Of a stretch of DNA of 64,000 nucleotides, positions 479 to 64,000 are shown piece by piece. The translations under genes and the position numbers were made by a program. The notes beneath the pieces were generated by a model. The model did no database searches. It was not told the DNA's origin and worked only from the letters and a program-made list of their open reading frames with translations. The DNA is from Thuidium tamariscinum (lineage: Eukaryota; Streptophyta; Bryopsida; Hypnales; Thuidiaceae), in contig OX344752.2 of NCBI GenBank assembly GCA_947034885.2, forward strand, positions 31,230,386-31,294,385, given 5' to 3'. Position 1 is the stretch's first letter; each line of letters starts with the position of its first letter.

Positions 479-1694
479 CCCCTAAAGCCCTAATGTACGT
501 TTTTTGGCATTATAAATTTTTTGGGTAGCTCACTACGAATGGAGTTTTTATTTTTTTTCACTGAAATTTTTACACAAGATGTGCCCAAGGAGTAGCTTTA
601 AGGCCCAACAATTTTTGTAACTTTTGACTTTGTAGTTAAAAAGTTATGGCATGATATGTTGTTTTCTTTACTCAGAAGGCAGCCCGGGCAGCTGAAAAAA
701 ATTCTTTAAAAAAACTATTTTTTTCAAAAGTGAAATTTCAAATTGATTCTTTAGGTTTTTATAGACATGGAAAGCTTTGTTTCATCCCACTTGGATTAAA
801 GAGTCAAAGTTATGAGCAATTATAGTTTGAAGGTAGGTATGAAATTTTTGAAAAGATGAATCTTGTATTCAACTTGTTTGAGAAGATGTGGAAAAAATTT
901 CAAAATTTTCCACTAGGTAGATTGCAAGATATGGAGTATTAGCATTTGAAGTTACAAAATTATTTTTTTTACCACTGCAAAAATTAGGGCAACTATACTT
1001 TAGAAGGTCACATTTGTATGAAAAAAAAGTTCAAAATGGTTTTCACTCTTTGGATTCATTCTTGAAGGCAAGTTGGCTAAATGCTGCAAAAATTTCAAAT
1101 CATTTGGAATTGTACAACACATGGAAAAATAACAGTAAGTAGAAAGAAGTAGAAAATGAACTAAAATACTAAATTGTAAACAATTTATTTATGGAATTGA
1201 AAAATGCCAATCCCAATTGTTAAAATGTTGTAATAAACAATCTTCACATGCTCTTTCTATTTTTTTTCCAAAAATATTAAAAATTGAGGATTTCAAATTT
1301 TTTTTGTAGCATAGAGATTCTATAACTAGTTTCAAACTACTTCAAACTAAAACTCCTCATAACTTTTGATTCATTGATTAAAATCAAGTGATTCAAAGCT
1401 TTCCACTTAGGCAAAAATATAATAAACCAATTTCAAATTTTTATTTCTCAAAAAAGTAATTTTTAAAGAAGTTTTTTTTCTTGCCCGGATTGCCCACAAA
1501 GTAAAGAAAGTGACATATCATGCCATAACTTTTTGACTATGTAGTCAAAAGCTATGAAAATTGTAGGGCCTTGAAGCTACTCCTTGGGCGCATATTGTGT
1601 GAAAATTTCAAAAAAATAAAAATAAAATCTCCATTTGTAGTGAGTTGTACAAAATTACTATATTGCCAAAAAATACAGTTTGGGCATTTAGGGG
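479..1694. mobile_element. piggyBac-like foldback element, long inverted arms
   Basis: The element begins CCCCTAAAGCCCTAATG just after TTAA (475-478) and ends GGGCATTTAGGGG just before TTCA (1695-1698), which I read as a decayed TTAA. The two ends are inverted copies of each other for about 350 bp (roughly 479-835 against 1330-1694), including a shared block around CCCAAGGAGTAGCTT and another around GTTATGGCATGATATG. The whole element could fold into one hairpin with a spacer of about 500 bp. It carries no transposase frame. Ends plus a TTAA target are what piggyBac elements show; the assignment is inferred from termini only. Confidence 0.65.
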
Positions 1695-1698
1695 TTCA

Positions 1699-2789
1699 AA
1701 CAATACTATTATTGAGGTTTAGGTGTCATGATAGAATTAGAAAAATCCATATAATTATTGTCTTCGATCTACAACATTGATTATTTTCTTAGTATTGATT
1801 AATAAAATTTTTTTAATGCATGGAGTTAATTATGATCAAATTATTCTATTGTCAATGAAAAATGTCACTCCACAATTGCCCAGAAAATTGATGCCCATTA
1901 ATCCCTTGATTAGTGCCAAGGCAACAAAATACTTCCTTTTTTGAATGTATTTTGAGATACTCTAAGTATTGAGGGTTAATATAAATTGAAAACTGAAAAA
2001 AAAGTATGAAAATTGTAGTGGTCTTACAAAATTTAATGTTCTAGAAAAGTAATTTTCTCATAAAATCTCAATCTCAAATTGAAAAAAACTAGGTGCATGT
2101 GATCAAAATATTAAAAAAAAATAAATTTAGAAACTTGATTTAAAAAACAAAACAATCATAAAGTTTGTAGTATATTTTGGTCATTGACACACTCAACTTC
2201 AAACTACTTGTAAAAACTTCAATTTTTAGAATTATTTCATTTTTGTGGTGTATGATAAACCAATCATCTAGAGTTCAAAGAATATCAAATGAAAGGTGAT
2301 AATATTGTAATTATAGTATTCAAGTACTAATTATGTGCATTTAAAGCATCTACTCTACGATATGCAATATAGACTAGATATAATGTGACAAATTATAAAA
2401 ATCTACAATCAATCCTAGCTTGAATCCTAGTAAGATAGGACTTGCTTCCATCTATGTTAAGCTTGGCATAAGTAGAACTAGTGCAATCAATTCTTTTATC
2501 ACTCACAATACATTGATTTATCCTATTAGAGCATCCTCAATCCAATTGTTAAATTAGCCTTTCAAATTTATTTCTAACTTTTAATTGGTATGTAATTAGA
2601 ATTTGAAATCATTATTATTGAAGGTGCATCCAATGGCCATTTTGAATAGCATAAAAACACTCAAATTTTGGCATTGGACAATGAAATTAACTTATTTTGA
2701 AAGCAAGCTAAAAAACCAAAAAAAATAGAGGCTTTCGCAAATTACATTTATTAAAGCAAAATTTGGCTAATTGCACATACCAAAATGTA
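1699..2789. other. AT-rich intergenic DNA without a gene
   Basis: No gene is visible. Two small items stand out. A stretch at 1899-1979 is bordered by TTAA on both sides and reads TTAATCCCTTGATTAG to ATTGAGGGTTAA, and may be a deleted TTAA element. TTAGAGCATCCTCAATCC at about 2525 resembles the left end of a Tourist-type MITE, but I could not find its right end. Confidence 0.4.
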
Positions 2790-2793
2790 TTAA

Positions 2794-3708
2794 CCCCTTA
2801 AGGACTAGCATGGTTTTGACAATGGAGGTTTTTAATGAATTTTAGCACTTTGATATTTTTTGCACATAGATGTCAATAAATTTTTTAATTTTAACAGTAT
2901 AAAAATAAAGATTACTTTATCTAGTATGCATGGAATGAATTTTAGAAAATTTGGACCATTAGATCTTTAGATTATAACAATTTTGGATGATTAACTTCAT
3001 AGGCCTAAACTGCAGGTTTTGGAGAAAAATATTAATAAAAAGATGAATAAATATTTTTTAACCCCCTCCAAAAAAATTATTTGGAATCTAAAGAAAATGC
3101 TGTATTTTTTTATTTGAAAATTCAAAGAAAAAAAAATCTCTCAAATTTGTACACATTTTCAAACATGAATACTAGAAAGTCATTTCCAAACAAATTGGAA
3201 CCTACAAAGTTCCTTAAAATTTATATATGGATAAATTTTTGAAATTTTACAAAAAATGTTATTATTATATTGTTTGGAATATCTTAAAAAAGTTAGAAAT
3301 AATTTTAATTATTTTATGTCATTAATTACACTTGATTGAACCTTTTATTCAAAATATTGTTAAAAACAAGAATCTGAATTTTTTTTCAAATTTTGTTTGT
3401 TTGTGGATTATAGAATAGAATTGTGTAAGAAAATGGTTTTTTTTTCCATCTCTACTATTATTTTCATGAAAAAACATTATACTTGCTCTCTTTTCCTAGT
3501 AGACTACATTCTTGACTACATTTTGTAAATGAATTTTTAACTTCTTCTATCATTCAAAATTTGAGAATCGGAAAATGCAAAAAGTATCTAAACTTCTTTT
3601 TGTACAAGATCTTAGTCCCCAAAATATTGAGATATATTTCACCTTTCTAAAAAATTGCCATTGAAAACTTTGGAGAAGACACATTGTGTTCTCTTAATCC
3701 TTGAGGGG
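2794..3708. mobile_element. piggyBac-like TTAA element, 0.9 kb
   Basis: Perfect TTAA borders lie at 2790-2793 and 3709-3712. The ends are inverted: CCCCTTAAGGACTAGCA on the left and TAATCCTTGAGGGG on the right, a terminal repeat of about 14 bp. The interior is AT-rich without a transposase frame, so it is non-autonomous or decayed. It belongs with the 44.5 kb element, which has the same CCCCTAAGGAC-type start. Confidence 0.6.
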
Positions 3709-3726
3709 TTAACAGGGATTTAAAGG

Positions 3727-4027
3727 CATTAGAAGACTATAAGTTATCTCAAGTTGTTGCACTATGAGAACTTGTGACATTAATAGTTTGGCATGGTTGA
3801 TAGACCACCATGTCAAAAATATGAATTAAAATTTTTTTAATTATTTTTTTTGCAAACAAAATATTTTCTAATCAATTTTAAATTTTTGTCTAACTTTTTA
3901 TACTTTAAATTTTTTTTAATTCAAAAATTCAAATTATTAGTGGCTAGTCCACAACAATGGGACAGTTGTAGACTTGTAGTGAACATCCCCAAAATAGTTT
4001 ATTGGAGGCCTCAAATCCCCTTTAATG
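3727..4027. repeat. CATTAG-ended MITE-like repeat (copy 2)
   Basis: The right end is clear (GGAGGCCTCAAATCCCCTTTAATG) and matches the family's right end in reverse-complement sense. The left end, near CATTAGAAGACTATAAG, is less certain. It starts 15 bp after the TTAA element at 2794-3708 and ends 8 bp before a CACTA MITE. Confidence 0.45.
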
Positions 4028-4035
4028 CTTACTAT

Positions 4036-4239
4036 CACTACAAGAGAAAGGGGTGTTTTAAGTAGTGTCCTAGACATCACGTCTTTTAAGTAATGTCTTT
4101 TAAGTAATGTCTTTTAAGTAATGTCTTTTAAGTAATGTCTTTTAAGTAAAATTTTACTAAAAAGACATTACTTAAAAGACATTACTTAAAAGACGTGATG
4201 TCTAGGACACTACTTAAAACACCCCTTTCTCTTGTAGTG
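4036..4239. mobile_element. CACTA-type palindromic MITE with TAT target duplication
   Basis: It starts CACTACAAGAGAAAGGGG and ends with the exact reverse complement, CCCCTTTCTCTTGTAGTG, with TAT on both sides (4033-4035 and 4240-4242). CACTA ends plus a 3 bp duplication are the hallmark of the En/Spm (CACTA) superfamily. The element is almost a perfect palindrome. The left arm is lengthened by a run of a 14 bp unit. A shorter 99 bp copy with the same ends sits at 55094-55192, so this family was active recently. Confidence 0.85.
4081..4149. repeat. 14 bp tandem repeat inside the CACTA MITE
   Basis: The unit GTCTTTTAAGTAAT is repeated almost five times without change. The same unit appears once in inverted form in the other arm, so the array grew by slippage in one arm of the hairpin after the element formed. 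The 55.1 kb sister copy lacks the expansion. Confidence 0.85.
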
Positions 4240-4942: not shown

Positions 4943-4946
4943 TTAA

Positions 4947-5584
4947 CCCCTAAATGCCCAAGGCATCAAGATGTGGTGTTTGCAAAACTTTAAAGTTAAA
5001 TAAAACCTAAGCAAATTGCTATGTTTAGTAGTTTATATTTTTGGAAATTTCTTTTTGAAGTCTAGTTTAAGCATCTTGATTATGATTGATGATCTTTTTG
5101 GAGATTACAAAATCTTGACTTTCTATAGAGAGTTGAGGACTTTCTGGAGATTGTTGAGGGCTTTTAGAAATGAGCCTCAAATACACTAGATCTTGGAGAA
5201 AAAACCACATTTGAAATTCATTTAAAAAAATTATAGAGTAGACTTTGAGAAGCTATAAATTGAATGGGGTTATGCAATCTAGACACTTTAACCTCATATT
5301 TTTTTGGCAACCAAATTTTTAGATTTGACATGTGAAAAATAGGTTGAAAGACCTTTTAAGGCACTTTTGCAATTTTAACACCCTCATGATCAAACATTAT
5401 AATCTTTCCATCCATAAGTGATATTTTTCATGTAATCTTTTCCTAAGTGATCTTTAGCATGTCTAGATTGAATTTGTACAGTTACATTTCAAAAAAAATT
5501 GATAAAGCTTATCAAAATGTTGACTTTATGTTGAATATAGAGCAAATTCCTAGAAGCTTAGAAAAGGCCTTGGGCATTTAGGGG
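4947..5584. mobile_element. piggyBac-like TTAA element with 18 bp perfect inverted ends
   Basis: The cleanest member of the set. TTAA borders lie at 4943-4946 and 5585-5588, and the ends CCCCTAAATGCCCAAGGC and GCCTTGGGCATTTAGGGG are exact inverted repeats of each other. It is 638 bp long with no transposase frame. An element starting at 63559 has the same first 16 bases, CCCCTAAATGCCCAAG. Confidence 0.75.
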
Positions 5585-6769: not shown

Positions 6770-6923
6770 TGTTGACAGATGTTCATCCATCCACCTCGAT
6801 TCTTCATCCAGTTATACCTGGATCTTGTATATATTACCCATGATCTCTTTGATAATACAGTTTTCGAGTTATTCAACTAAGTATGTATGTATGAGTGATT
6901 GTTGATCTGTCGATGTTTGAACA
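6770..6923 (+). repeat. Copia LTR, inverted relative to the internal region
   Basis: The stretch starts TGTTGACAGATG and ends GATGTTTGAACA, typical TG...CA LTR borders, about 154 bp. Its last 81 bp (6843-6923) equal the reverse complement of 9013-9093. Confidence 0.7.
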
Positions 6924-6962
6924 TTTGTCAATTGCCTCAGATTTGTTTCGCAAAAATCTCAC

Positions 6963-7643
6963 CTAGATGTATCGACTGAAGTCATCAATAATTACCAAGA
7001 AGAAAGATGATCCGCCGAGTGATGGTACTGGAAGCGGTCCGCAAAGATCGATATGTAGTAACTGGAGAGGTCGTGAAGCTCGTGATAAACTTTGGTGAGG
7101 AAAACTTTCTCTGGTTTGTTTCCCTGCTTGACAATGGTCACATATTTCTTTGTGTACTAGAATGTATGGGATCCCTGTAGCGAGTCTCTTGGCTGAGAAC
7201 TCATGTAATCGATCATAACTGATATGGCCTAGTCGATGATGCCAAAGTTTTGCAATGTCTAGATCCGTTTGAGCTATATTGATGTTTACATCTGACTTTA
7301 TGGTTGAGAGATGATAAAGACCATTTCGTTTGTTTCTCAAGCCCTCAGCTACAATGTGTTTGTTGCCTCGGCTATACAAAATGCATTTCTGATCATCAAA
7401 GCATGCAACAATTCCTTTGTCGGTTAAAGAACCGATAGATAGCAAATTTTTGCTGAAACCAGGAACGAATAATATTTCATCGACTTTCTTTATTTCTCCA
7501 GATGGAAGAGTAAAATGCACAGATCCTTTTCCCGTAATCTGGTGTCTTTCACCATCCGCGGTTCTCACACTGCCGCTATACTGATCTAGTGTCAAAAAAC
7601 TACTACGATCTCCGGTGACATGTTGAGTTGCTCCGGAGTCCAA
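6963..7643 (-). mobile_element. Copia protease, pre-integrase and integrase start (fossil part)
   Basis: The family is shown by the aspartic protease signature MDSGATQHVTG, the GAG-pre-integrase zinc region with LWHHRLGHISYDRL, and the beginning of the integrase core (LHIDLCGPLPVPSLGG, then VIIDDFSRY). It belongs to the partial Copia element at 6770-9093 and is treated as a fossil. Confidence 0.85.
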
Positions 7644-7721
7644 ATACCAGCCTGAGTCTGTGTTGTTAATATCAAGAGAAGAAATAGCGGCCTCGAATAT
7701 TTCAAAGTTATGCTCAGATGG

Positions 7722-8660
7722 CTACTCAATATTCTCGGTCACTGCACAGGCCTCAGGGTTCGTCCAAGACGACTCTTCTTGAGCTAAATTTGCAGAAAAC
7801 GGTTTGATCCCAAGTCTTGTACGTCTATCGGCCTCTAACTTCCTGATGTCAGCTAGTCTCTCTGGACACATATCTTTGGGATGCCCAAAGCGTCCGCAAT
7901 AGAAACAACGAATCTGACGAGTTTGAAAATTTCCAGAGGAGTTACCTTGGAAGTTGCTCGATGAGCCTTGCTGACGATAAGGACCGGTGGATTGATTTTG
8001 CTGGCCGTTGTAGCGTTGAGGCGGCCCTCTGAAGTATAATGCTTCTGACTCGGGTGCCTTAGTGTTGATTTTTGATTGTCGGCGACTTTCTTCCAACAGT
8101 AGTCGAGTCTGTAACTGATCGAGAGTAGGAAAGCTGCCAGAACTTGTATAGTTCTTCAAGAAGTAGTCAAAACTGTCAGGAAGAGCCTTCATTACAATTT
8201 GCACTAGATCCGTGTCATCGATCTTTACACCAATTGCCGATAACTGTGCAAGATTCTGTCGAAACTGAGAAAAGTAAGATTCGACTCCAGTGCTCTCAGA
8301 GAAACGTAGAAGAGAGAGACGATTCTTTAGCTCAAACTTCCTGCTATCATTATCGACCTCAAATGATCTGCACAAGAAATTCCACAACAGTCGAGGTTCC
8401 TGATATTCGGTAAGTTGTGTTAACAGTGAGGGCTTGATGGACATAGTAAGAATGTACATCAGTCGCTCTGTCTCCTCTTCATCTTCATCAGACTCTGTGG
8501 AGCTGTCTGAATTTGCATTAGAAGATGCACCAGGTGACGATGATAGGAGATACCACAGTTTTTCCTTCTTGGCTATCCTAGTAATCATGTACTTCCAAAG
8601 ATGGAAGTTTGAAGAGCCTACGAGTTTCACCTCGTCTGGGACTGTATTGTCTCTCGACAT
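7722..8660 (-). mobile_element. Copia gag-like region (fossil part)
   Basis: It has the gag polyprotein layout of plant Copia elements: an N-terminal region with LVGSSNFHLWKYMITRIAKK, a helical UBN2-type middle with LWNFLCRSFEVDNDSRKFEL, and a CCHC zinc knuckle, CFYCGRFGHPKDMC. It is part of the element at 6770-9093. Confidence 0.85.
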
Positions 8661-9000
8661 TCCTGTCTATCGACTTGAAGCTTGAAAAAGTTCTACGGTC
8701 GAAGCAGGTATCGGACAGAAAACGAGCTGCTACGGTTCGATCGATCGACCGGTACTGAATCTAAAGCGGCACGACTTCGGAAGAAAATCTGAAGAGACGG
8801 GATTGACAACGACTCCACAGATACAGTCCAAAGTGTGGCTGTTATGTAACGAAGCTTAGTAACGTAACTCAGTAGCGTGAACTGCTAGATGTAAGCGCAA
8901 ATCAACAGACTGATCATACACTCTGTAATCACAGATTAACAGGATAATTACACACAAAAGACTTAACGAGCTTCACGAGCATCACAAGATTCTCACCACC

Positions 9001-9012
9001 GCTCTGATACCA
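9001..9012 (-). other. Primer-binding site of the Copia element
   Basis: On the minus strand the twelve bases read TGGTATCAGAGC, the complement of the 3' end of plant initiator-methionine tRNA, directly next to the LTR end TTTGAACA. This fixes the element's orientation. Confidence 0.9.
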
Positions 9013-9093
9013 TGTTCAAACATCGACAGATCAACAATCACTCATACATACATACTTAGTTGAATAACTCGAAAACTGTATTATCAAAGAGAT
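9013..9093 (-). repeat. Copia LTR 3' part
   Basis: The terminal 81 bp of the LTR lie next to the primer-binding site and are identical by eye to 6843-6923 in reverse complement. The rest of this LTR is absent. Confidence 0.8.
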
Positions 9094-12503: not shown

Positions 12504-12704
12504 TAGTAGTATGGTTTATTAACTTACCTCTTCTATATTATGGATGTTGTATAATCTAGGTTTTGTCAAATAACGTGGGGAAGGTTTTGTTACATTGAAA
12601 ATCCTATTATAGATTGGAATTCTAATATTCACATTACTTGCACCCACTTTGAAGGTGTCATGTATTTTTTAAATGCTTGCTATATTTTTTGGCATATCAC
12701 TTAC

Positions 12705-12904
12705 TAAATGTGTTTGATGGATGACAGAGAATTCTTGCATGTAAGACAAAAGGGTAATTGTTCATCATTGGAATTTTGTGCAAAAGGAGGAGGTCTTGCA
12801 TAGTAGTATGGCCTCCAATGAATACTTTTGGTTTGTTTAAAGTAGATGATTTGCAATACTTCAAAAAGGATAATTTCCATGAAAACTAGACCATCCTTAC
12901 AGGG
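12705..12904 (-). mobile_element. Short piggyBac-like TTAA element (copy 1 of the short subfamily)
   Basis: The right border is TTAA at 12905-12908 after TTACAGGG. The left border, TTAC (12701-12704), is degenerate and is followed by TAAATGTGTTTGATGG. The interior (GACAGAGAATTC, then GTGCAAAAGGAGGAGGTCTTGC, GGCCTCCAATGA and AAGTAGATGATTTG) matches copies at 21.4, 21.6, 39.6, 55.0, 56.0 and 56.8 kb in the appropriate orientation. About 200 bp, non-coding. Confidence 0.55.
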
Positions 12905-21194: not shown

Positions 21195-21383
21195 GTTTTT
21201 GGACATTTTTTTTATATCTTCATGAAAATGTATTTCTTATGCCAATTCCATCAAATTGACATTAAAAAAATGTATACATGAAAGATTAAAAAATGGCTTA
21301 GGATGAATGAGAAGATATTTAAAAAAATATTAACCTTAAAACAATGCTCTTTTCATCTTCTAAAATATGGATATTAGAATTAA

Positions 21384-21607: not shown

Positions 21608-21828
21608 TCCTAAGACATTGTAGACACTAAGACATCCAATGGATGAGATCTTAAAGAATCTTTTTACATTGGATAATGGGGACATTCTTTCATAGAATTT
21701 TATGTGAAAAAGGAAGATCTTGCACAATAATTTGACCTCCAATGAGTGCTCTTGATTTCTTCTAAGCAAATGATTTATACATTCAAAGCCAAGTAAATTA
21801 GTACTATGATCAACCTATCCTTTTCGGG
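21608..21828 (-). mobile_element. Short piggyBac-like TTAA element (copy 3), head-to-tail neighbour
   Basis: TTAA lies at 21604-21607 and 21829-21832. The left end reads TCCTAAGACATTG and the right end CTTTTCGGG. The interior AAAAAGGAAGATCTTGCAC, GACCTCCAATGAGTGCTC and AAGCAAATGATTTATAC match the 12.7 kb copy. The orientation is the same as copy 2, so the pair stands head to tail. Confidence 0.55.
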
Positions 21829-22110: not shown

Positions 22111-23019
22111 GCATGATTAATATGCTTTAGAAAATGAAGAACATTTTTTGCTTGTTGATGAAGGACTATGAATCAAAATGCAAGTGATTCCATAATTTTT
22201 GGATGCATTTTGAATTAGTTACAAATTTTTAAAGATGAAAGGTGTAGGATGCTAAAAGTGTCATGTAGGTGATGCCAAAATCCATTTGATTCACATCAAG
22301 AAATCACACTAGTAGTATGGAAGCATGTCATAGAGAAGAAGTTAAAACAACATTCAAGAAGTATATTCAAAGTCGATGACTTATAAGGTTGCCACCTTCT
22401 AAGTAATATAAATAAAATTGCACACTATTCAAAATGGCCTTTAATCCCTTAGCGCTCAAACGACCATTTTTTGGTCATTGTCTGACTTCGGGCAAAATTT
22501 CGGGAAAAAAAAAAACTTTTTTCAAATTTTTTTTTTCAAATTTGAAAAAATTGGGTTCTCTTTGAACATTTATATTCAAAACTAAGATCAATATGGTCAA
22601 ACAAAAATCATGAGAGATATAGCACAAAAGGTTTAGAATTGCCTAGTGTTGAAAAACTTACTATTTTGGAAAAGTGTTGATGGTCTCATTACTAGATCTT
22701 TTGCATTTTTTCACAAATCAATAGAAACCACAATTTTGACTAATCAACAATAAAAAAATTCATATACTAAATAAAGAAATTGTATTTTTGGTGAATTTTT
22801 GAAGTTATATCTTCAAAATTCATTTGAAGAGAACCTAAAAATAATTTTATAATTTTGATTGTACAAATGCTTTTTACATTTTGTACTCTACATTATCTTC
22901 TTTGATACTAACTTCAAAAAAATTACATAACTTACATTTTTTAACACATTTGTATTTTGTCCTAATCCCTTGGACTTTTCGGCAGGCCATGTGCATTACT
23001 AAAGGACAAATGTAAAGTG
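22111..23019. other. AT-rich intergenic DNA, one possible TTAA-element end
   Basis: No gene. TTAATCCCTTAGCGCTC at 22441 followed by GACCATTTTTTGGTC looks like one end of a TTAA element, but I found no partner end. Confidence 0.35.
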
Positions 23020-28164: not shown

Positions 28165-28385
28165 CCCTGAAGCGCTCCGACGTCCATATGCTGGACGATG
28201 AACAGAGGGCTTCAAGGCACTGTTTCATTCAATTAACTTCTCATTTATCAAATGTAACACTTGAATCTAGAAAAGACAACCTTCCTTAATGACCAAATTC
28301 ATTAAATTATGGTAAATGATATATCTATACAAATGTATAAGTGAAAATGCACAAAAATTCAAAAAAGGATTGAGACATTTCAGGG
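28165..28385. mobile_element. piggyBac-like TTAA element, 3' of the dioxygenase
   Basis: TTAA borders lie at 28161-28164 and 28386-28389. The left end is CCCTGAAGCGCTCCGACGTCC, the right end ACATTTCAGGG. The left part holds GGACGATGAACAG, also found in both arms of the large element at 59795-61024, which ties the two into one subfamily. A second left end, CCCTGAAACGCCGGAGG, starts at once after the right TTAA (28390) with no partner found. Confidence 0.55.
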
Positions 28386-28549
28386 TTAACCCTGAAACGC
28401 CGGAGGGACGGAGTGGAATGACAGATGCTGAAGCCCTGAAGACGCTGTAGCGCATGGTAGGAGGCAGTAATACTGCAGAAAGAAGGAAGTGCGAGATTAA
28501 TGAAGATGATTCCCCCAGAAAACCAAAGTCCGGGCAGTTTGATTTGTGA

Positions 28550-39566: not shown

Positions 39567-39793
39567 CCCTTCAAGGATGCTGCGGCCGTTTTGGGGGTCG
39601 ATGAATGACAAAGAATCTTTTTATGGAAGTAGGATAGAAGTTCTATCGTTCATCTACAGAATTTCGTGCATAAATTTCGTGCATAAAGGGGTGATCGTGC
39701 ACAATAGTTTGATTTTCAATGAGTATTTTTTTTAAAGGAGATGATGTCATATAGCATCAAAAAGGATGATTTTTACACTCACCAATGATGCTT
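39567..39793 (-). mobile_element. Short piggyBac-like TTAA element (copy 4)
   Basis: TTAA at 39563-39566, then CCCTTCAAGGATGC; the right border TTAA at 39794-39797 is less certain. The interior GATGAATGACAAAGAATC, GAAGTAGGATAGAAG and GATCGTGCACAATAG matches the reverse complement of the 56.0 kb copy. A small direct duplication of TTTCGTGCATAAA lies inside. Confidence 0.5.
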
Positions 39794-39845
39794 TTAAGGT
39801 CAAGACATGTTGTTTGATTGTTTGTTTGTTACAATAAGATCTTCT

Positions 39846-44552: not shown

Positions 44553-45471
44553 CCCCTAAAGGACCAAGTCCTATTTTCTGCCCAAAAACACTAAAAACTG
44601 CCAATTCTATAACAAAGAGTAAAAATAAAAATTAATTCCTTTTTTTCCACATCTAACCATAGGATCTTATACCTCACTAGTCTAAGATAGTGTGAAAAAA
44701 AATTCAGAATTTTTGACCACACAGGTTGCAAGATACTTGCATTTAAAGTGGGAAAAACAAGTTTTTCAGCACATTACGAGACTGGATTTTTTGACTTTGA
44801 ACATTTTTAACTTAAAAATTTTGCACTAAAGAGTTTTGAGCTTAATTATTTCTAATGAAAAATTGAGTTGAGAATCTAGGTAAAATAAATAAATTCAAAA
44901 AAACTTAATTTTCATTCTTAAAAAAATTGTTAAGTAGAAGTAGGTACGAGATAGAAGGAAAATCTAAAATATTAATATCTTTTAAATGGAATTAAAATGC
45001 ACTAATCCTAATGGTGAGATTGCTCTAGCAAGTAAACTAAACCATGAAAATTTTGTTTTTTCAAAAATTGCAAAAATTGCATTGAGAAATGAATCCTACA
45101 AGTTATTTTTTTCAAGAAAATGCTCTAATTGCCCAAAAAACAAGAATGTCCATAACTTTCTCCTAACAAATCCAAATAAAATGAATCAAAGCTTCCTAGA
45201 TAGACAAAACTATAATCTATAAGAAAAAAATTCAAAAAAAAAATTCAAAATTTTTCTTTGCTGCCCGAACTGCCCGCCGTCCCTTGTTTTGAGGTTATTT
45301 GGGCATAACTTTTGTTCATGGTCACTGATTGAAAAAAAATTATATCCCCATGAAGATATTCAATTTTTCTATCTGTAAAAAAAGTTTCAAAAAAATAGGA
45401 CAAAAATTCAGCCCGAAGGTACCTGCCCAAAATTACATTTGTCCCCCGAAGGGACAATGGTCCTTTAGGGG
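44553..45471. mobile_element. piggyBac-like TTAA element, 0.92 kb
   Basis: TTAA at 44549-44552 and CTAA (decayed) at 45472-45475. The ends CCCCTAAAGGACCA and TGGTCCTTTAGGGG are exact inverted repeats of 14 bp. The right half holds CTGCCCGAACTGCCCGC and TTTGGGCATAACTTTTGTTCA, recalling CTTGCCCGGATTGCCCAC and ATGCCATAACTTTTTGAC in the 479-1694 element, so the two subfamilies are related. No transposase frame. Confidence 0.65.
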
Positions 45472-49460: not shown

Positions 49461-49482
49461 ACTGGTTTTGGGGACCACAGTT

Positions 49483-52702: not shown

Positions 52703-53185
52703 TGGGTGATTGCAAGAAACACCTATACTATTTGTTGTGTTTTGCAACAATACTCATGACTTTTTCTAGAGTACTTTAAAATTAGAAAACTAATTTTAAA
52801 TTTTTTTAGAAATATGACTTATGTATATATCTTTAAGACCAAGGTACACACAAAAGGAATTGCATAGAAAAATTGTCAAAGTAGGAGAACTTGAAAAGTA
52901 CTAAACCTCAAGAAATACATACTTTCATGTTTTAATTAGGTAAAAATAGTAAAAATAAGTAAACACAAAAAACAAAAAGTAATTATTTGCAACAATTCTA
53001 TGGAGATGGTCATTCACCCAAAAAATCACCAAAATAATATTTTATATGTTTCAAAATACAAGCAGAAAGAAGCTCACTTTGTAGACTTTCACACCATGTA
53101 AAATCAACTATTTTTGAAAATCATTCTTTAGAGAGCTAGAAGTCTACTAGAAGACCATATCATCTAAATTTTATCTCAAAATCGT
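52703..53185 (+). mobile_element. CAAGAAACAC-ended TIR element, right end missing
   Basis: It starts TGGGTGATTGCAAGAAACACC and aligns directly with 32971-33455 over its full length, including GCAACAATTCTATGGAGATGG and AGTCTACTAGAAGACCAT. At CAAAATCGTTA the alignment stops and another member of the same family begins. Confidence 0.65.
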
Positions 53186-53447
53186 TAGGGTGATTGCAAG
53201 AAACACTTATCCTATTTGTTGCATTTGGTTGATTTTTTGGGGAGCACTTTAAAATTAGAAAATTAATTTGTAAAAAATTTGAAAAATATGACTTATGTAT
53301 AGTAGGGTACCTTCTTCTTAAAGGTGTATACATTGAACATATTTTTCACATTTAAAAAAAATTCTAATTTTATATTATTGCCAAAAAAATTATGAGTACT
53401 ATGTAAAATGAGACAAAAAAACAAGAGGCCTTCCTTGCAATCACCCC
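53186..53447. mobile_element. CAAGAAACAC-ended TIR element, short form
   Basis: Left end TAGGGTGATTGCAAGAAACAC, right end CTTCCTTGCAATCACCCC, inverted. It is 262 bp and was inserted at or next to the end of the element before it. GGGGAGCACTTTAAAATTAG relates it to the longer forms. Confidence 0.6.
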
Positions 53448-55022
53448 ACACACTTCCCTAATGACATTAGACATGTCACTTGGTAATATGGGGCAAAAAT
53501 TCCATCTTATTGTACAAGGACTTATGTAAACACTATTTGCCACAATCCTAATTGCCCTTGAAGATCACCCCACTTCATTCTAGTCCATTTATATTTGCTA
53601 CCTCTAAACTATGGCTAAGTAACACTTATAACTTGAGACACACCAAGAATAGCCAAAAAAAGAAAGGAACTTCAACAACCAATGCCACATGACAAACACA
53701 AGTGTCTTATAGTGCCTTGGAACAGTGGTGAAGTCATATCACTAACCTTGAGTCACTAAGACTCACCAATGCTCTAAGAAAAAGGGAAGAAGGAACCTCA
53801 TGCCCTCCTATAGTATTCTCTCTAGTATTCAACAACCCTCCTCTTGCATATAAAAGGAACTTCTTAAATTCACTTGGATTTTGGAAAACCACCCTATTTC
53901 CAATTGAAATCACAAAAGACACAATCAACTTTCAACAATTATAACACTTAGCCTACTAGTCCAAATCATAAATTCTTTGGATGGTTGGAAGTACCTTTTC
54001 AAGAGCTTTTCAAACATGAATGACACACCACCAACTTCAAAGATTGTTTATGAGAAAGTTATAAACAATCTTGTTTTGGGGGCAATCTAAGCTACTTCTT
54101 TGAAAAATCACTCGAAGGCTAGTTTTTTTTTAATGCAATTTATACAATTGTGCAATGAGGTTAAATATTCTTCTTAGAACAATCTCACTAAGCATCTAGA
54201 TTTATGTGTTTCTAATCCATCTTAAAGCTATTTAAAATTTAGTTTTTTGTTCAATTTTAGACTTCTACATGACAATTTTTAAAGAATGAATATTAAGTGT
54301 GTTTGTTTGTTTTTTAAATTCCTAGACTTTTGAGTCAATCCTTCAAAATAAATTTCCTTGGTCTATAGTGAAAAACTTTTCACAAATGGCAATCAAAGTC
54401 ATTTGAAATTGTAAAACAGTGTTAAAAAAAAATCCCAACTTTGAATGCTAATATCTTCCAATCTATGTGGTCAAACTTCATAAAAATTTTACCACATGAT
54501 TTTAGATAATTGAAGTACAAGGTCTCGCCATTTTATCCTAAAAAATTTATTTTCTACTTTTTTGGATGAATACAATAGAAATGGTAGTTTTGAGTGGTTT
54601 TGGGTAGAAAAATGTTCTTCTAATTGGGACTTTAGAATTCAATTTCCTTTCTAAGCAATAATTCATTCTCCACCTTCAATATTTGTTCATGAATTTTTTA
54701 TTTTTTGAATATTATATATATATATTTTTTTATTTTTTTATTTTTTTTTATTTTTTTTATTTATTTTTTATTTTTTATTTTTTTTTGTGAAGTAGAGTAG
54801 CTAGCAAGAAATTTAGAAAAACAATCATCCCTTTGAGACTATTTGTTGACTTCATTTGAGTTTGTAATGCAACACTTGGTATTTACAAATAGAACCTCAT
54901 TTAGTACATCCTCTCTGAGTGCATAATTGTCAATTATGCAATTTGTAAGTGGGTCCAATTTGAAACATTTCTTTTGTGAAAAGTAGTGTAGTTAGAAGCA
55001 ATACTAGTAAGGTGGCCATTAT
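53448..55022. other. AT-rich intergenic DNA with a T-rich tract
   Basis: No gene. 54713-54787 is a low-complexity (AT)n plus T-run tract of about 75 bp. Confidence 0.4.
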
Positions 55023-55026
55023 TTAA

Positions 55027-55350
55027 CCCTTGAACAACGGACTAGTAACTATGGAAATCATGCATTTTGATTCCGTGTGACATCATCTACTTTCACTACA
55101 AGAGAAAGGGGTGTTTTAAGTAGTGTCCTAGACATTACTTAAAAGACGTGATGTCTAGGACACTACTTAAAACACCCCTTTCTCTTGTAGTGTTTAGAAA
55201 AGCCAAATATATTAATTGGAAGTCAAAGCACTGTAAAAGATCTCCCCTTTCCACCCCTAAAACCGAGGACCAATAGTTGCACTTTCATTCTACAAAGGAA
55301 GATTTTCTATCATTCTATGGACACAAAACATCCTCTTTGATGTTTAAAGG
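55027..55350 (+). mobile_element. Short piggyBac-like TTAA element (copy 5) carrying a nested CACTA MITE
   Basis: Perfect TTAA borders lie at 55023-55026 and 55351-55354. It begins CCCTTGAACAACGG and ends TGATGTTTAAAGG. Its order (GGAAATCATGCATTTTGAT, GTGTGACATCATCTACTTT, AAAAGATCTCCCCTTTCC, GGACACAAAACATCCTC) is the same as at 56041-56366. A CACTA MITE sits at 55094-55192 inside it. Without that insertion the element is about 225 bp. Confidence 0.65.
55094..55192. mobile_element. Minimal CACTA-type palindromic MITE, TTT duplication
   Basis: It is 99 bp, CACTACAAGAGAAAGGGG to CCCCTTTCTCTTGTAGTG, with TTT on both sides (55091-55093 and 55193-55195). Its arms appear to be a perfect palindrome and match the outer parts of the element at 4036-4239. 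Its perfect arms show that it is young, younger than the TTAA element it entered. Confidence 0.9.
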
Positions 55351-55354
55351 TTAA

Positions 55355-56036
55355 ACTTCCGTTAATTAGTGCATAGTTCCAATATTGTATAACATATAGA
55401 TGAACATATAGATCTGGCAATACATAATAATTATTGTAACTACTATAATCAAGGGAAAAAAACAAAAGTAATAGATGATCTATAAATTCATATCTATTTC
55501 AAATAGAAATTTGTTGTCAACATTTCAAGTTTGTGTAGTCAAATAACAATCCAACCATCCAATGTCTTTGTTCAAATTCTCCCTTAAAGGACATTTTATG
55601 TTTGGGCTCTGTCAAAAATCATTAGATTTTTACATTAGAATACACATTTCAAAATTTTGATATTCTTCACATATAGTAATATATGTCTAAAATTTAATTT
55701 AATTTATTTATAATTAAAAATATAAAATTAGATTTTATATGATTTTATAAAGAAATTTATTTAGACAATTCATAGTAATTACAAAAATATTATAAAGAAT
55801 ATGAAATCTCCAATATAAATGGAGATAATAGTAACACCATAGTATAATTGATGCACTCCAAAAGATCACATTAACAAAAACTTGCTAGAAAAAGTTCAAA
55901 AAGTAGTGTATTTTGAACTTTAAAGATGCTATCTTCAAAATGTGACAAAAACAACAATGTAACAATTTTGAAGAAATTTATATGAAGTAAAAAATAAGTC
56001 ATTAAAATAATATTTCCTTGGTTAAACTTAAAACAT
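55355..56036. other. AT-rich intergenic DNA
   Basis: No gene or repeat end seen. Confidence 0.4.
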
Positions 56037-56040
56037 TTAA

Positions 56041-56366
56041 TCTTTGAAGGACAAACTCATGGTCATAAAAATCATATATTTTAATACCATGTGACATCAT
56101 CTACTTTGAATCAACCAAATATATTCATAGGAAATCAAATCATTACAAAATCAAGAATATAAATTACTTGTTTACAATGACCATGAAGGCAACAATGACT
56201 ATTATACAATCATTGTTGCCTTGACTTTACAATCATTGTGGACAAGTTATTTATACCCATATTTTTTTGGTAGTAAAAGCACTATAGAAGATCTTACACT
56301 TCTACCCTACAACAGAAGAATCTTTGTCATTCATCAACACAAAATGTCCACCTCAACATTTAGGGG
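56041..56366 (+). mobile_element. Short piggyBac-like TTAA element (copy 6) with a nested hairpin
   Basis: TTAA at 56037-56040 and 56367-56370. It begins TCTTTGAAGGAC and ends ACATTTAGGGG. It is in the same orientation and of the same subfamily as 55027-55350. A hairpin of about 108 bp is inserted at 56158-56265. Confidence 0.6.
56158..56265. repeat. Small hairpin insertion
   Basis: ATAAATTACTTGTTTACAATGA and AAGGCAACAATGA on the left pair with TCATTGTTGCCTT and ATCATTGTGGACAAGTTATTTAT on the right. It is absent from the sister copies at 55.0 and 56.8 kb, so it is an insertion, probably a tiny MITE of another family. Confidence 0.6.
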
Positions 56367-56460
56367 TTAAAATAAAGAACTATGTGAAAAATAAAGACTT
56401 GACTTTTAAAATGCCCATCAAACTTGCAATGTCCTATAAGGGTCAAACTAACTTCCCGTT

Positions 56461-56572
56461 TCCATGGGGGAATGATCCAAGCTACTAAACAATGTTTAGA
56501 ATACTCAAATACTAAATCCATGGGGGAATGATTCAAGCTACTAAACAATGTTTAGAATACTCAAATACTAAA
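56461..56572 (+). repeat. Recent 56 bp tandem duplication
   Basis: The unit from TCCATGGGGGAATGATCC to ACTCAAATACTAAA occurs twice in direct succession (56461-56516 and 56517-56572) with one difference (GATCCAAG against GATTCAAG). It is very recent and lies in intergenic DNA. Confidence 0.95.
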
Positions 56573-56792
56573 AATGTTTGCAGCAACAATCTCTACAATG
56601 CTAGAAGGCCACCACTTATATCCACACAATGCAAATTTTCAACAAACAATAACTACATCTAGGAAGTGTATTTCACAAACCCATCTAAAGGATATACAGT
56701 TACAGCCGGTATACCACAAACACCGTAAGAACTTCACAACAATTTTGCAGGAGTCCTGCCTGAACAAAGACCCCACAGAACTATCCATTTAA

Positions 56793-56996
56793 CCCTAGAA
56801 GGCTAGGCTAGTCATTGTGGAAATCTTTCTTTTGGGTACTGGGTGAATCATTTGCATTAAAAAACCAAGAGTAAACACTGCAGGCCAAACCACTGTGCAA
56901 GACCTCCCTTTTCACACAAAATTCCAAGGATAAACATCTACATAGAGGGATTCTTTGTCATCCATCAAACTTTTAGGCCACCGCATTCTTTCAGGG
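56793..56996 (+). mobile_element. Short piggyBac-like TTAA element (copy 7)
   Basis: TTAA at 56789-56792, then CCCTAGAAGGCTAGG; the right end TTTCAGGG precedes TTAC (56997-57000), a decayed TTAA. The interior CACTGTGCAAGACCTCCC and GATTCTTTGTCATCCATCAAAC matches the other short copies. The start CCCTAGAA is the same as in the well-known moth piggyBac terminus. Confidence 0.6.
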
Positions 56997-57183
56997 TTAC
57001 GTAACAAGCGATCATTGTTAACAAATTTACTACTCAAGACACTAGAGATAACTCGTTTCAGTCTCTACGAAGCGACTTCCTGGTGTCCAATAAGTGATGC
57101 AAGCTAATTACAACATTCATTAGCAACCAATGCTAATAAGATCTCTGGTGAACTCGAACGTCCTAATTGTGAAACGGATAACA

Positions 57184-59790
<2,607 letters not shown>

Positions 59791-59794
59791 TTAA

Positions 59795-61024
59795 CCCTGG
59801 AGTGCACCGACATCCAATTTCTGGACGATGAACAGATTCAAAATTATTTTTTTGTCTCGTTACTACTTCGATGGAAGTCATCTTAATTTTTAGAAATTTT
59901 TTATGAAGTTTTTGTTCTATCAAAGGGTTGGATTTGGATTACATTATTTTTTTACATTATTTTTTTAAATTACATCTAGATTACATTATTTTTTTTACAT
60001 TATTTTTTTAAATTACAAATGTGAAAGTATGTCAAGTGGTTGACTTGTGTTGACTATAGTTCAAAACCAAATTTACAAAAATGAGGTCATAGAATTAAAG
60101 AACAAAAAATATTCAAAAAAATCATCACATGAAGAGAACCTCATTTCAAACCTACTCCAACAAGTTTTACTTGAAAAATGACAATATTTTGCTTGTAATT
60201 GAATTTTGAAGGGATTTTGAAATTTTCCTTTTAGAATTTATAGAAAATATTGGTGAAAGCATTGGAGAATCTAATCATATAGTTGAAATCTAAAACTCAA
60301 AATTTACAACTTTTGTTTGTATCACGATCCCAAAATATTCTTCCTCATAGTACTTTATAATGATTTTTCCCAAATCGTCAATTTTAAATATCTAATTGTG
60401 ATTTGTTTGCAAAATCATTCCCCACTTAGATTTGTGCACACAATGTAAGTGCTTTAACCCTAGAACGTCTAGATCCATCTCCAAAATTGGCTACTTTGGA
60501 AAAATCATTATAAAGTATTATTTGTTGGAATATTTTGGACTTGATATACAAATAAAAATTGTAGATTATGAATTTCAGATTCAATTTGTACAATTAGATT
60601 CACCAATGCTATCATCAATTTTTTTTTATAAATTTTGAAAAAGAAAATTCTGAATATCTTCTGAATTCAATTACAAGCAAAATATTATCATTTTTTGAGT
60701 GAAACTTGTTGGAATGGATTTGAAATGAGGTTCTCTTCATATGCTGATTTTTTGAAATTTTTTTGTTCTTTCAATCTATGACCTCATTTTTGCAAACCCA
60801 ATTCTGAACTAAAATCATTGCAATTTTTGGCTTGACAAACTTCCACATTTGTAATTTTAGAAAAATATAAACTCTAATAACACCAAATCCAACCGACAAA
60901 AAGGACAAAAACTTGATGAAGTATCACCACAAATTAGATGACTTTCATCCAAGCTGTAATGAGAAAGAAAACTGAGTTTCATTCTGTACATCGTCCAGAA
61001 ATTAGACGTCGGCGTGCTTACGGG
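59795..61024. mobile_element. Large piggyBac-like TTAA foldback upstream of the aldo-keto reductase
   Basis: TTAA borders at 59791-59794 and 61025-61028 are perfect. The outermost 41 bp are inverted copies: left CCCTGGAGTGCACCGACATCC, then AATTTCTGGACGATGAACAG; right CTGTACATCGTCCAGAAATT, then AGACGTCGGCGTGCTTACGGG. Pairing continues inward for about 400 bp (GAGAACCTCATTTCAAACC against GGATTTGAAATGAGGTTCTC; AATATTTTGCTTGTAATTGAA in both arms), leaving a loop of about 400 bp. The left arm also has a small TTTTTTTACATTA duplication near 59960-60010. No transposase frame. A 28.2 kb element shares GGACGATGAACAG. Confidence 0.75.
60454..60475 (+). repeat. Extra TTAA-element left end in the loop of the large foldback
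   Basis: TTAACCCTAGAACGTCTAG stands alone inside the loop. It may be an old nested insertion that lost its right part, or an internal relic from an ancestor of the element. Confidence 0.35.
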
Positions 61025-61028
61025 TTAA

Positions 61029-62805
61029 ACATAAAAACCTCATATGTGTTTTTTAAACACTTATTTTAAAAACTTTGAGCATTTGTAGATTATTCATTTT
61101 TTGTTCCAAAAATGCAGATACAAAGAATCTAAAATTCCATTTTGCCTCCCAAAAGGTCCATTGATAATTTAGACAATTTATTAATGGGAAATCAAGCTCA
61201 ACTAATGCTTATTGAGTAAGTTGGTTTTAAATGTAGCTACCTCATCCAATCCACATTATACTTCATATGTTCTTTATCAAGGAGTATTTACACTTAATAT
61301 TCAAATAATGGATTAACTAGTATGGTTATTTTTGGGAAGGAACATGCTTCATGAATTTGAAATGAGGTTTTCTTCATTTTTTCATGTAAATGTAGTAAGT
61401 TTTTGTATGAAATGGAGATCTTTGTAAGTTATACAAACAATAGTATGAAAATCTGACCTACAAACAACTATAAAGTTGTAGATTTATAAATTAGCTATCA
61501 TTATTGTTATTAAAGTCTTTCAACTCTTATGCTACATTCTATCATGTCAATGAAAACAAAGGTCATGTTACCTTTCTAAAGCCTTTGAAATGGGAGCACA
61601 TTAAAGAATACCATGGAAACCCTTGGGGAAAAACGCTGAAATTTTTTATTTTTTGCATTTTTTATTTTTTTCAAATTCTGAATTCAGATTCAGAATCAGA
61701 AACCCCAAATTAGTGAGGGGAACCCTAAATGTACCAAAAAACCCAACACAAATATAAACCCCAAACCCTTGTCAAACCCTTGTAAAATGACATTTGCCTC
61801 ATTGGCCCCCTTTCAATGGTATTCTTTAACGTTTTGCTTTGACATGGACTTGAGAAAGAAAGTTAGAGAAATTATTGGCTTTTAGATATTGTTAGGTTTC
61901 ACAAAATCGCATACAAAAGTAATAATGAATTCAAAAATTGTATGAAATAATTATATAATACATTTCTAGGTCTACACTTTCAACCATGGATTTAATTATC
62001 ACTAAAACTAGAGACATTTAAATGATGTGAAGATGAAGCCAAGTAGGCATGAATTTAATGAATGATCCATCTCTTATACACAAGCACTTCTTACCAATGA
62101 TAAAAAAAACTAAACTTTAGCTAGTTCAAAGATAGCTAGTGGACTGGTAAAAAGAACATTTTCATTTTGAAAATAAAGGATGCAAAAGTAGTAAGAAATA
62201 TGTAGGGTTGGAAATCAATCCATCCCTTCCAAAAATTAGAGGATATTTTACTACCTTCTTCCAATATTTGGCAAATTTCACCTACTATAGAAAAATTTCC
62301 AATAGCGTATACCTCAATTTCCCATGTATCAACTTCCTAAGTGAGCCTCAAAATCAAATGTACACTCTTAAATTCTAAAAAAGTATGAAAAGAAATAGAA
62401 GGGAGGGATTGGGATTACTTTATCAAAGTGTCAATGTGTGAGCGCCATGATGTACGCACCATCTTTTTCTATCCAAAACAACATCAAACAAAAGCTTTAA
62501 AATGGCATGAGAGCATTAACTTTGGATTGATGTTTGTGCTATCTTTTGGATGGACAGTGAGAAAGTGTTCATTTTTTTGAAAACCAATCATGAAAAAATA
62601 GAGCAGCACATATGTCATTCAATCCTATGTGGTTAAGCTTTTATTGGATCTCTAAAAGAGGTATAAAAGATTTTTTCTACTAGTTGTTAAAATTCATTCC
62701 AAAAAGCTAAATGAAGTTCTTATGTAATTCTTTCTATAAAAAGTTCATGAGTTGTGTTTGTTTGCATACTTCCTACCTCCTATAGTTTGTATTGTTCAAG
62801 AAATA
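61029..62805. other. AT-rich intergenic DNA, no gene
   Basis: I see no gene or clear repeat end. 61690-61800 carries several CAAACCC/AACCCC words of no evident meaning. Confidence 0.4.
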
Positions 62806-63149
62806 TACTAGATGAAATTTGAAGGCAACAAAAAGCTTTTGCAGGGTTCTTCCGCTAGCTATTCCTTATGTTGTGCAAGAATTGCATATCAACCCTTGCT
62901 ACCTAATTTTGCAAATCTTTGTAAATTTTTTTAATTATCATTATTTTAAATATTAATAAATTAAATACCAATTTAAATAATCATGTTTTTTCAAAATAAT
63001 ACTAAAAATAATTTATAATTTAATTTAATTGATTAATTAATATAATTTGGCATGGCATAGTCTCGACCATATCAACATGTTCATGTAACAAGTTCTTAGA
63101 GTCAAGTAACAATTTAGAAACTTGAGGGAAGCCTTATGGGCTTCTAATG
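62806..63149. repeat. CATTAG-ended MITE-like repeat (copy 7), diverged
   Basis: The left end TACTAGATGAAATTTGAAGGC is weak and the right end GGGCTTCTAATG is clear. The interior has TTGGCATGGCATAGTCTCGACC, the diverged form of the TGACGTGGCA box. Confidence 0.5.
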
Positions 63150-63463
63150 TCCCCAAATTTTTTTAATGGATTAGGCTGCACTCTATATGGAATAAATCTA
63201 TATTTGTATAATTTGTATATGTATTTTGTAAAGATATGTGTATATTCTATGTAAACTTTATGTGTCATGTATTTTGTGCTCCAAGCATCATACTCCATAT
63301 CAATATTTTGTATCCTTAATGGCTTTAGTACTTTTTGCAAATCAATCTCATTTGGGGAGCTCCTCATTTTCTTTTGAGATCCAACAGTGGTCATTCAACA
63401 TTATTTTATTGTGGAAAAAAACAACCAAGATTGACAGTATGATGGATAGTTTCATTTTTTAAT

Positions 63464-63552
63464 CTCAAATCTAATGGTGCATTAGGGGAGATTTGAGGGC
63501 ATTAGAAAGCCCACAAGGTTTTTTTGAGTTCCCAGACTATGGGAATGTACCA
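63464..63552. repeat. Two CATTAG-family ends back to back
   Basis: A right end (ATCTCAAATCTAATG, to 63476) is followed after 3 bp by a left end (CATTAGGGGAGATTTGAGGGC, from 63480). The second copy runs through AGAAAGCCCACAAGG and GACTATGGGAATGTACC and is then cut off by the TTAA element that begins at 63559. Confidence 0.5.
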
Positions 63553-63558
63553 TATTAA

Positions 63559-64000
63559 CCCCTAAATGCCCAAGCCTTTTCAAGTGTGTTTTGACTATGA
63601 ATAAAGTGCATGGACTTGTAGTCATCCCTAGTGAAGCAAATTGATTTTTTTTCAAAATCTAACCGCATAGATGTTTAAAGAGCTTGTTTATTAGTGAGTA
63701 CACAAATTTTGAGCATAAAACTACATTGGAGTTGTGAGATTATAACGAGAGAAGAGTACATTTTCTATATTTAGTATGCTGCCTTTTCCCACAATGTTTC
63801 TCAAATTTGCATATAAATGTTTTTGGGGATTTGAGGTGACATGAACAACTACAAAAAGTGTTAGCACACTAAAATGCACTTCTAAAAAACTTAATTTCAC
63901 ATGAAAAGCTATTAAATTCATTACACAATCCACCTTGCAATTGTTGAAATGCAATTATTTTTATAAGTAGAAATTGCAAATAACTCCAAATCAATAGTTG
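63559..64000 (+). mobile_element. piggyBac-like TTAA element, runs off the window
   Basis: TTAA at 63555-63558 is followed by CCCCTAAATGCCCAAGCC. The first 16 bases equal those of the 4947-5584 element. An internal AATCTAACCGCATAGATG recalls AACCATAGGATC of the 44.5 kb element. The right end is outside the window. It cuts a CATTAG element and is therefore younger than it. Confidence 0.55.

What the first reader, a model, noticed from the sequence alone, without database searches (positions are those of the whole stretch)
479..63999. A multi-subfamily set of piggyBac-like TTAA elements in a plant genome
Seen directly: elements beginning CCC(C)T and ending A(C)GGG(G), flanked by TTAA on both sides in at least seven cases (2794-3708, 4947-5584, 21608-21828, 28165-28385, 55027-55350, 56041-56366, 59795-61024) and by TTAA on one side plus a one-base variant on the other in several more (479-1694, 44553-45471, 56793-56996). 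Established: TTAA target duplication with CCC...GGG ends is the signature of the piggyBac superfamily, including the CCCTAGAA terminus of the moth element. To my knowledge the superfamily is described from animals, fungi, oomycetes and algae and is not a recognised part of land-plant genomes. Inference: this plant hosts, or recently hosted, an active piggyBac-type transposase that moved these non-autonomous elements.
Basis: partly seen in the sequence, partly recalled or inferred. Interest (0 to 1): 0.85.

Follow-up and report, generated by a model that had tools for sequence, protein, structure and literature searches.

The report
piggyBac-like mobile DNA in plant genome
This stretch of plant DNA holds about a dozen old jumping-gene copies with no recognisable protein, carrying the cut-and-paste marks of the piggyBac group, which is well known in animals but little documented in plants; the enzyme that moved them was not found.

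Summary
All ten listed elements are at the stated coordinates, seven with TTAA on both sides. TTAA precedes 20 of 297 CCC(C)T runs, about 2 expected. I count 12 two-ended elements and 4 single ends: 24 of 28 ends have exact TTAA, the other four one substitution each, at four different positions. The 12 cover about 10% of the window and show no Pfam domain. Ends fit piggyBac (CCYT, TTAA), not Kolobok, PIF/Harbinger or Tc1/mariner. That TTAA is a duplicated target is probable, not settled: two neighbouring copies share one TTAA, and one host-repeat terminus fits modestly better with one TTAA; but the related unoccupied copy of the 4947-5584 site is 4 bp short and lacks TTAA. No piggyBac transposase domain in the 59.5 kb scanned. 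Family copies are 49-71% alike, so recent activity is unsupported. 'Not recognised in land plants' is overstated: a review lists PiggyBac among angiosperm MITE superfamilies. Verdict: ancient piggyBac-type non-autonomous elements; transposase and membership unproven.

The parts
479..1694 (.). TTAA element, CCCCTAAA ends, long inverted arms 479-844 / 1330-1694
   Evidence: TTAA left, TTCA right; arms 76.8% over 371 aligned columns
2794..3708 (.). TTAA element, ends CCCCTTAAGGACTA / CCCCTCAAGGATTA, at the terminus of a family-B repeat
   Evidence: TTAA both sides; blind TIR+TSD scan; host repeat terminus compared with and without TTAA
4947..5584 (.). TTAA element, perfect 18-bp TIR CCCCTAAATGCCCAAGGC
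   Evidence: TIR 100% over 18; flanks match contiguous 22131-22347 minus
   Evidence: alignment, end table
21608..21828 (+). family A copy, TTAA both sides
28165..28385 (+). TTAA element; left 42 bp match 59795-61024 at 35 of 42; its right end does not match beyond the first bases
28390..28402 (+). single end CCCTGAAACGCCG next to the right TTAA of 28165-28385 (partner end not found)
39567..39799 (+). family A copy, TTAA left, TCAA right
12690..12904 (+). family A copy; right end GGG|TTAA kept, left end not recognisable (start approximate)
44553..45471 (.). TTAA element, 14-bp TIR CCCCTAAAGGACCA, TTAA left, CTAA right; decayed inverted relative at 54042-54524
55027..55350 (-). family A copy carrying a nested 99-bp CACTA-type MITE (55094-55192, TTT on both sides)
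56041..56366 (-). family A copy (weakest member), TTAA both sides
56793..56996 (-). family A copy, TTAA left, TTAC right
59795..61024 (.). TTAA element, imperfect palindrome over nearly its whole length
   Evidence: 59807-61012, 70%
60458..60480 (+). single end CCCTAGAACGTC after TTAA (no partner)
63559..64000 (+). left end of a CCCCTAAATGCCCAAG element, cut by the window end
22131..22347 (-). related unoccupied copy of the 4947-5584 target
   Evidence: 79.7% over 222 bp across the junction; 4 bp shorter at the junction, no TTAA
46102..46701 (-). PIF/Harbinger-type DDE_Tnp_4 remnant, not part of the set; inverted arms 45543-45578 / 48982-49016 of GTTACAA type lie around it
   Evidence: PF13359 E 2.7e-11; arms; that the arms are its ends is inference

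Best explanation
The set is a collection of old, non-autonomous cut-and-paste DNA transposons of the piggyBac type. A transposase encoded elsewhere bound the CCCYTNAARG ends, cut the element out together with TTAA overhangs through a hairpin intermediate, and joined it to TTAA targets, which were duplicated. Shown here: the 4-bp TTAA boundary, the shared CCC ends, one multi-copy family, no Pfam domain inside the 12 elements. Inferred: the transposase, its superfamily, the duplication (probable), and the hairpin chemistry (known from the moth element, PMC7351741, abstract and passages).
For: 28 ends: flank positions -4 to -1 read T,T,A,A in 27 of 28 each, positions -8 to -5 unordered; element positions 1-3 C in 25, 27, 23 of 28, position 7 A in 27 of 28 (most ends were found through TTAA+YCC, so the counts for those letters are biased; element positions 5 and up and flank positions -5 and out are not). 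Ends found by the element motif alone: 11 of 27 TTAA. Family A: of 14 ends in 7 copies, 11 have exact TTAA, 2 a one-off variant, 1 is not recognisable. Copies 21384-21603 and 21608-21828 share one TTAA. The flanks of 2794-3708 joined with one TTAA align without a gap in the first 15 columns to 12 other family-B termini and match better than with no TTAA in 10 of 12, by 1-3 letters of 15; equal in 1, worse in 1. Terminal rule CC[C/T]T plus TTAA for piggyBac: PMC2872659, PMC10175614; arms up to 528 bp occur in piggyBac (PMC10813416).
Against: The one contiguous related unoccupied site (22131-22347) lacks TTAA and is 4 bp shorter than flanks joined with one TTAA, at the exact junction. In family B only 3 of the 12 other termini have TTAA at that place, the others TTAG, and the margin is small. 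No DDE_Tnp_1_7 domain at E up to 0.1 in both strands of 1-49500 and 52001-62000 (49501-52000 and 62001-64000 not scanned). The only DNA-transposase domain matched is PIF/Harbinger type. Inverted pairing of ends is not enriched in a loose scan. Sola3, which I recall also uses TTAA, could not be excluded: its termini were not found in the held papers.
Confidence: 0.7

Rival explanations
1. Sola3-type elements: another TTAA-targeting superfamily moved them.
For: Sola1 is recorded from Physcomitrella in a review table (PMC9033089); Sola is listed in the fern repeat table; TTAA for Sola3 is my recollection.
Against: CCYT ends are the stated piggyBac rule. Sola3 termini could not be checked.
Confidence: 0.1
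2. TTAA is part of the element and nothing is duplicated (an unknown TIR type ending TTAACCC).
For: The 22131-22347 site is 4 bp shorter and lacks TTAA.
Against: Two adjacent copies share one TTAA; the family-B terminus fits better with one TTAA in 10 of 12 comparisons, by a small margin.
Confidence: 0.1
3. PIF/Harbinger-like elements, moved by a relative of the DDE_Tnp_4 remnant at 46102-46701.
For: A DDE_Tnp_4 remnant is in the window.
Against: PIF/Harbinger uses TWA and its first base is usually A or G; the related groups use AT, ANT, CWG, TNA or no duplication (PMC4482050, passages). Here four bases are fixed and ends start with C. Arms near the remnant are of GTTACAA type.
Confidence: 0.04
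4. Kolobok elements with TTAA duplication.
For: Kolobok also makes TTAA duplications (PMC9587614, passages).
Against: Kolobok ends are 5'-RR and YY-3'; here C is first in 25 and second in 27 of 28 ends.
Confidence: 0.03
5. Chance or interstitial telomere repeats (CCCTAAA) in AT-rich DNA.
For: CCCCTAAA resembles the plant telomere unit (recalled).
Against: Single units in inverted orientation at both ends; other subfamilies read CCCTGAAG or CCCTTGAA; enrichment P 5e-13.
Confidence: 0.01

Closest known systems
piggyBac-derived MITEs of corals (CMITE families, PMC2872659, passages seen)
   Same: TTAA flanks, CCC(C)T ends such as CCCTTTAAGCCCTA and CCCCTCAGTGTCCG, several families, tandem copies
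   Different: coral elements are about 100 bp with conserved interiors, beside resident piggyBac-like transposons; here 204-1230 bp, some long palindromes, no piggyBac domain seen
piggyBac elements of small animal genomes (PMC10813416, passages seen)
   Same: CCC ends, TTAA, occasional one-base TSD variants, arms up to 528 bp
   Different: many of those encode transposases; host is animal
PiggyBac MITE superfamily of angiosperms (named in PMC10004981, one passage seen)
   Same: plant host, assigned from TSD and TIR
   Different: no sequences were available to compare

Membership tests
piggyBac | TTAA as the 4-bp target next to the element | tested here: met
   24 of 28 ends exact, four one-off, bases further out unordered
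piggyBac | that TTAA is duplicated on insertion | tested here: inconclusive
   shared TTAA and family-B terminus for it; 22131-22347 site against it
piggyBac | termini CCYT / CCC | tested here: met
   C at positions 1, 2, 3 in 25, 27, 23 of 28 ends (partly used for finding)
piggyBac | terminal inverted repeats, usually 12-19 bp | tested here: inconclusive
   18 bp perfect (4947-5584), 14 bp (44553-45471), but 366-bp arms and a near-full palindrome in two others; no end-to-end arms reported for 2794-3708, 28165-28385, 55027-55350 and 56041-56366 in the same search (other four elements not given to it)
piggyBac | DDE_Tnp_1_7 transposase with these ends | not testable with these tools
   none in the 59.5 kb scanned; no genome held
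piggyBac | seamless excision restoring one TTAA | not testable with these tools
   no orthologous alleles available
Kolobok | 5'-RR...YY-3' termini | tested here: not met
   ends begin CC (rule)
PIF/Harbinger | 3-bp TWA duplication, first base usually A or G | tested here: not met
   four fixed flank bases, first base C in 25 of 28 (rule)
Tc1/mariner | TA duplication only | tested here: not met
   outer T and inner A are as fixed as the central TA, 27 of 28 each
Sola3 | termini and DDD transposase | not testable with these tools
   termini not found in held papers

The most novel reading that the evidence does not exclude
This plant lineage carries, or carried, its own piggyBac transposase lineage that seeded several unrelated-looking non-autonomous subfamilies amounting to about a tenth of this window, so the superfamily would be a major, overlooked part of some land-plant genomes, inherited from algal ancestors or gained by horizontal transfer.
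Probability: 0.45. Interest if true: 0.7.

Novelty: new member of a known kind. Interest (0 to 1): 0.5.

Why it matters
If the elements are genome-wide, piggyBac belongs in plant repeat libraries, and an endogenous transposase would bear on the use of piggyBac vectors in plants and on how the superfamily reached land plants. The subfamilies are directly searchable by their ends.

Tried and rejected
Exact-pattern scans for TTAACCCCTAAATGCCCAAG in viral contigs and genome contigs, and for a looser pattern in viral contigs, gave 0 matches; blastn of 4947-5584 against plasmids gave none; Rfam and tRNA scans of the window gave none. Those collections are not plant genomes, so the zeros mean little.

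A partner scan seeded at TTAA+YCC gave partners for 479, 2794, 4947 and 44553 (4 of 22 plus-strand seeds) and for 3 of 14 minus-strand seeds (2794, 4947 again and one non-CCC pair); 74 of 476 control TTAA seeds also had some partner at the same threshold, so that scan shows no enrichment. The blind TIR+TSD scan returned 2 of my 12 elements. Searching the joined flanks of 13 elements for empty sites found only the 22131-22347 site across a junction; the 21608 hit was a self-match. A third copy of that site (48991-49053, E 1.5e-4) starts to the right of the TTAA and says nothing about it.

Literature: nine searches, of which I saw capped listings; none of the listed rows was about a piggyBac transposase of a land plant, which does not prove that no such paper exists. 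A 207-genome plant MITE survey (PMC12550479) was seen in the listing only, where 'piggybac' had 0 occurrences. PMC10619864 was a false lead ('piggybacking').

I considered that 49188-49457 (TTAA|GGTGGGTACACC), 61605-61825 (TTAA|AGAATACCAT) and 31970-32225 (TTAA|GTAACAAA) belong to the set and left them out: their ends are not CCC, and in the first family the outer flank base varies.

Mended after re-checking: the family-B margin is small, so I lowered the main confidence from 0.75 to 0.7 and raised the 'TTAA is part of the element' rival from 0.06 to 0.1; the nested CACTA MITE is 55094-55192, and the piece left out (55087-55195) was 10 bases longer than that MITE; exact excision gives 48.6-71.2% instead of 48.6-71.6%, with 3 of 21 pairs below the shuffled maximum of 54.2. 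The end table had one start two bases off (21382); one search uses 21384.
Full report
The window. It is 64 kb, 35.3% G+C, with plant genes: a 2-oxoglutarate dioxygenase in exons between about 24544 and 27837 (PF03171, PF14226; best PDB match At5g05600, E 1.2e-75), an aldo/keto reductase at 57184-59453 minus (ORFs, PF00248), a quinone-reductase-like gene at about 49483-51670 minus (recognised by eye; mostly outside the scanned part), a copia gag/pol piece at 6963-8666 minus and a PIF/Harbinger-type remnant at 46102-46701 minus. No whole genome is held for it, so copy numbers and orthologous alleles cannot be had. The species is unknown to me.

The observation. All ten coordinate pairs hold. The TTAA signal is far above chance in three ways: among the 4-mers before CCC(C)T runs (20 of 297; P 5e-13), in the count of TTAACCC(C)T (20 against means of 2.1 and 3.6), and when ends are found by the element side alone (11 of 27 for CCC[CT]TNAA, 9 of 14 for the longer motif). 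I assembled 28 ends: 12 two-ended elements and four single ends (12904, 28390, 60458, 63559). Flanks are exactly TTAA in 24; the exceptions are TGAA, TTGA, TTAG and GTAA, one change at each of the four positions, and positions -8 to -5 show no clear preference. That is what a 4-bp target with neutral decay would leave, and what a 2-bp or 3-bp target would not. Most ends were found by way of TTAA+YCC, which inflates those letters; the flat outer flanks and the A at positions 6, 7 and 8 (18, 27 and 23 of 28) are not affected. Two scans gave less: a blind TIR+TSD scan returned only 2 of the 12, and a loose partner scan showed no enrichment over control TTAA sites.

Families. Family A has seven copies (12690-12904 with one end lost, 21384-21603, 21608-21828, 39567-39799, 55027-55350, 56041-56366, 56793-56996), found by self-comparison and alignment. 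Pairwise identity is 48.6-71.2% over 21 pairs against a mean of 40.5 and a maximum of 54.2 in five shuffled sets; 3 of 21 pairs fall below that maximum. The family is real but old, and 56041 is its weakest member. A second group has CCCCTAAATGCCC-like ends (479-1694, 4947-5584, the start at 63559). A third shares a left end, 35 of 42 letters (59795-61024, 28165-28385), while their right ends differ. 44553-45471 has a decayed inverted relative at 54042-54524 (65% over 522 columns). 479-1694 has 366-bp arms and 59795-61024 is a palindrome almost throughout. The lengths of the 12 elements add up to 6667 bp, about 10% of the window.

Is TTAA duplicated target or element? Three tests. (1) 2794-3708 lies at the terminus of a family-B repeat that reads CATTA[AG]RGGGATTTGAGG; the flanks joined with one TTAA align without a gap in the first 15 columns to 12 other termini, one of them the other end of the same copy. 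Over 15 letters the one-TTAA joining matches better than the no-TTAA joining in 10 of 12, by 1-3 letters, equals it in one and is worse in one: modest support. (2) Copies 21384-21603 and 21608-21828 are separated by a single TTAA, as expected when one inserts into the TTAA at the edge of the other; the right end of the first has lost its GGG, so its placement rests on the alignment. 28165-28385 and the end at 28390 show the same arrangement, but the partner of 28390 was not found. (3) The flanks of 4947-5584 match 22131-22347 (minus) continuously (79.7% over 222 bp), which shows an insertion, but that copy reads ACACC-TTTC-ATC where one-TTAA joining gives ACACC-TTAA-TTGC-ATC: four bases short, no TTAA, in an alignment with otherwise only single-base gaps inside. 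A later deletion or an imprecise excision in the related copy could explain it; read alone it would favour TTAA as part of the element. On balance duplication is probable, not settled.

Which superfamily. TTAA with CCYT ends is the stated piggyBac rule (PMC2872659 and PMC10175614, passages; CCCTC, CCCTT and CCCAT, besides CACTA, in PMC10813416). Kolobok has RR..YY ends (PMC9587614, passages). PIF/Harbinger uses TWA and usually begins with A or G (PMC4482050, passages). The DDE_Tnp_4 remnant in the window lies between GTTACAA-type arms. Sola3, which I recall as TTAA-specific, remains open because its termini could not be read. No DDE_Tnp_1_7 domain was found at E up to 0.1 in both strands of 1-49500 and 52001-62000. 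Membership therefore rests on ends and target alone; 'works like piggyBac' is better supported than 'is piggyBac'.

Mechanism. By analogy with the moth element (hairpin formation on TTAA, TTAA-specific integration, seamless repair; PMC7351741, abstract and passages), a transposase supplied in trans would have moved these copies. Nothing here shows that it still exists.

Novelty. Land plants are not a blank: a plant MITE review names PiggyBac among seven angiosperm superfamilies (PMC10004981, one passage), and fern and grass repeat tables carry PiggyBac lines. None of the rows listed in nine paper searches was about a land-plant piggyBac transposase; the listings were capped (see Tried and rejected). 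The finding is thus a well-supported local case of an under-documented kind.

Noticed in passing
6843-6924 and 9012-9093: An 82-bp perfect inverted repeat flanks the copia gag/pol piece at 6963-8666; LTR fragments should be direct repeats, so a local inversion or other rearrangement is possible.
   Followed up: no
36033-37215 and 38013-39169: A 1.2-kb direct duplication, 82% identical, with no Pfam match above its cut-off there.
   Followed up: no
about 3713-4022, 15900-16220, 19605-20260, 20603-21200, 63033-63550: Family B: repeat with terminus CATTARRGGGATTTGAGG; 12 other termini were aligned; borders by eye, its own target duplication unclear.
   Followed up: partly
49188-49457 and 28921-29197: Repeat with GGTGGGTACACC ends, TTAA/TTAA in one copy but ATAA and TTAG in the other, so probably TA-type rather than TTAA.
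   Followed up: partly
61605-61825: Single element TTAA|AGAATACCAT...ATGGTATTCT|TTAA with purine-purine ends, the Kolobok-type pattern; one copy only.
   Followed up: no
4036-4239, 39846-40172, 55094-55192: CACTA-type MITEs (CACTACAAGAG or CACTAGAAG ends) with 3-bp duplications TAT, TCT and TTT; the last is nested in the family A copy 55027-55350.
   Followed up: partly
29707-30114: MITE with GAGCATCTC ends and TAA on both sides, PIF/Harbinger-like.
   Followed up: no
22131-22347: Related unoccupied copy of the 4947-5584 target is four bases short at the exact junction; unexplained.
   Followed up: partly
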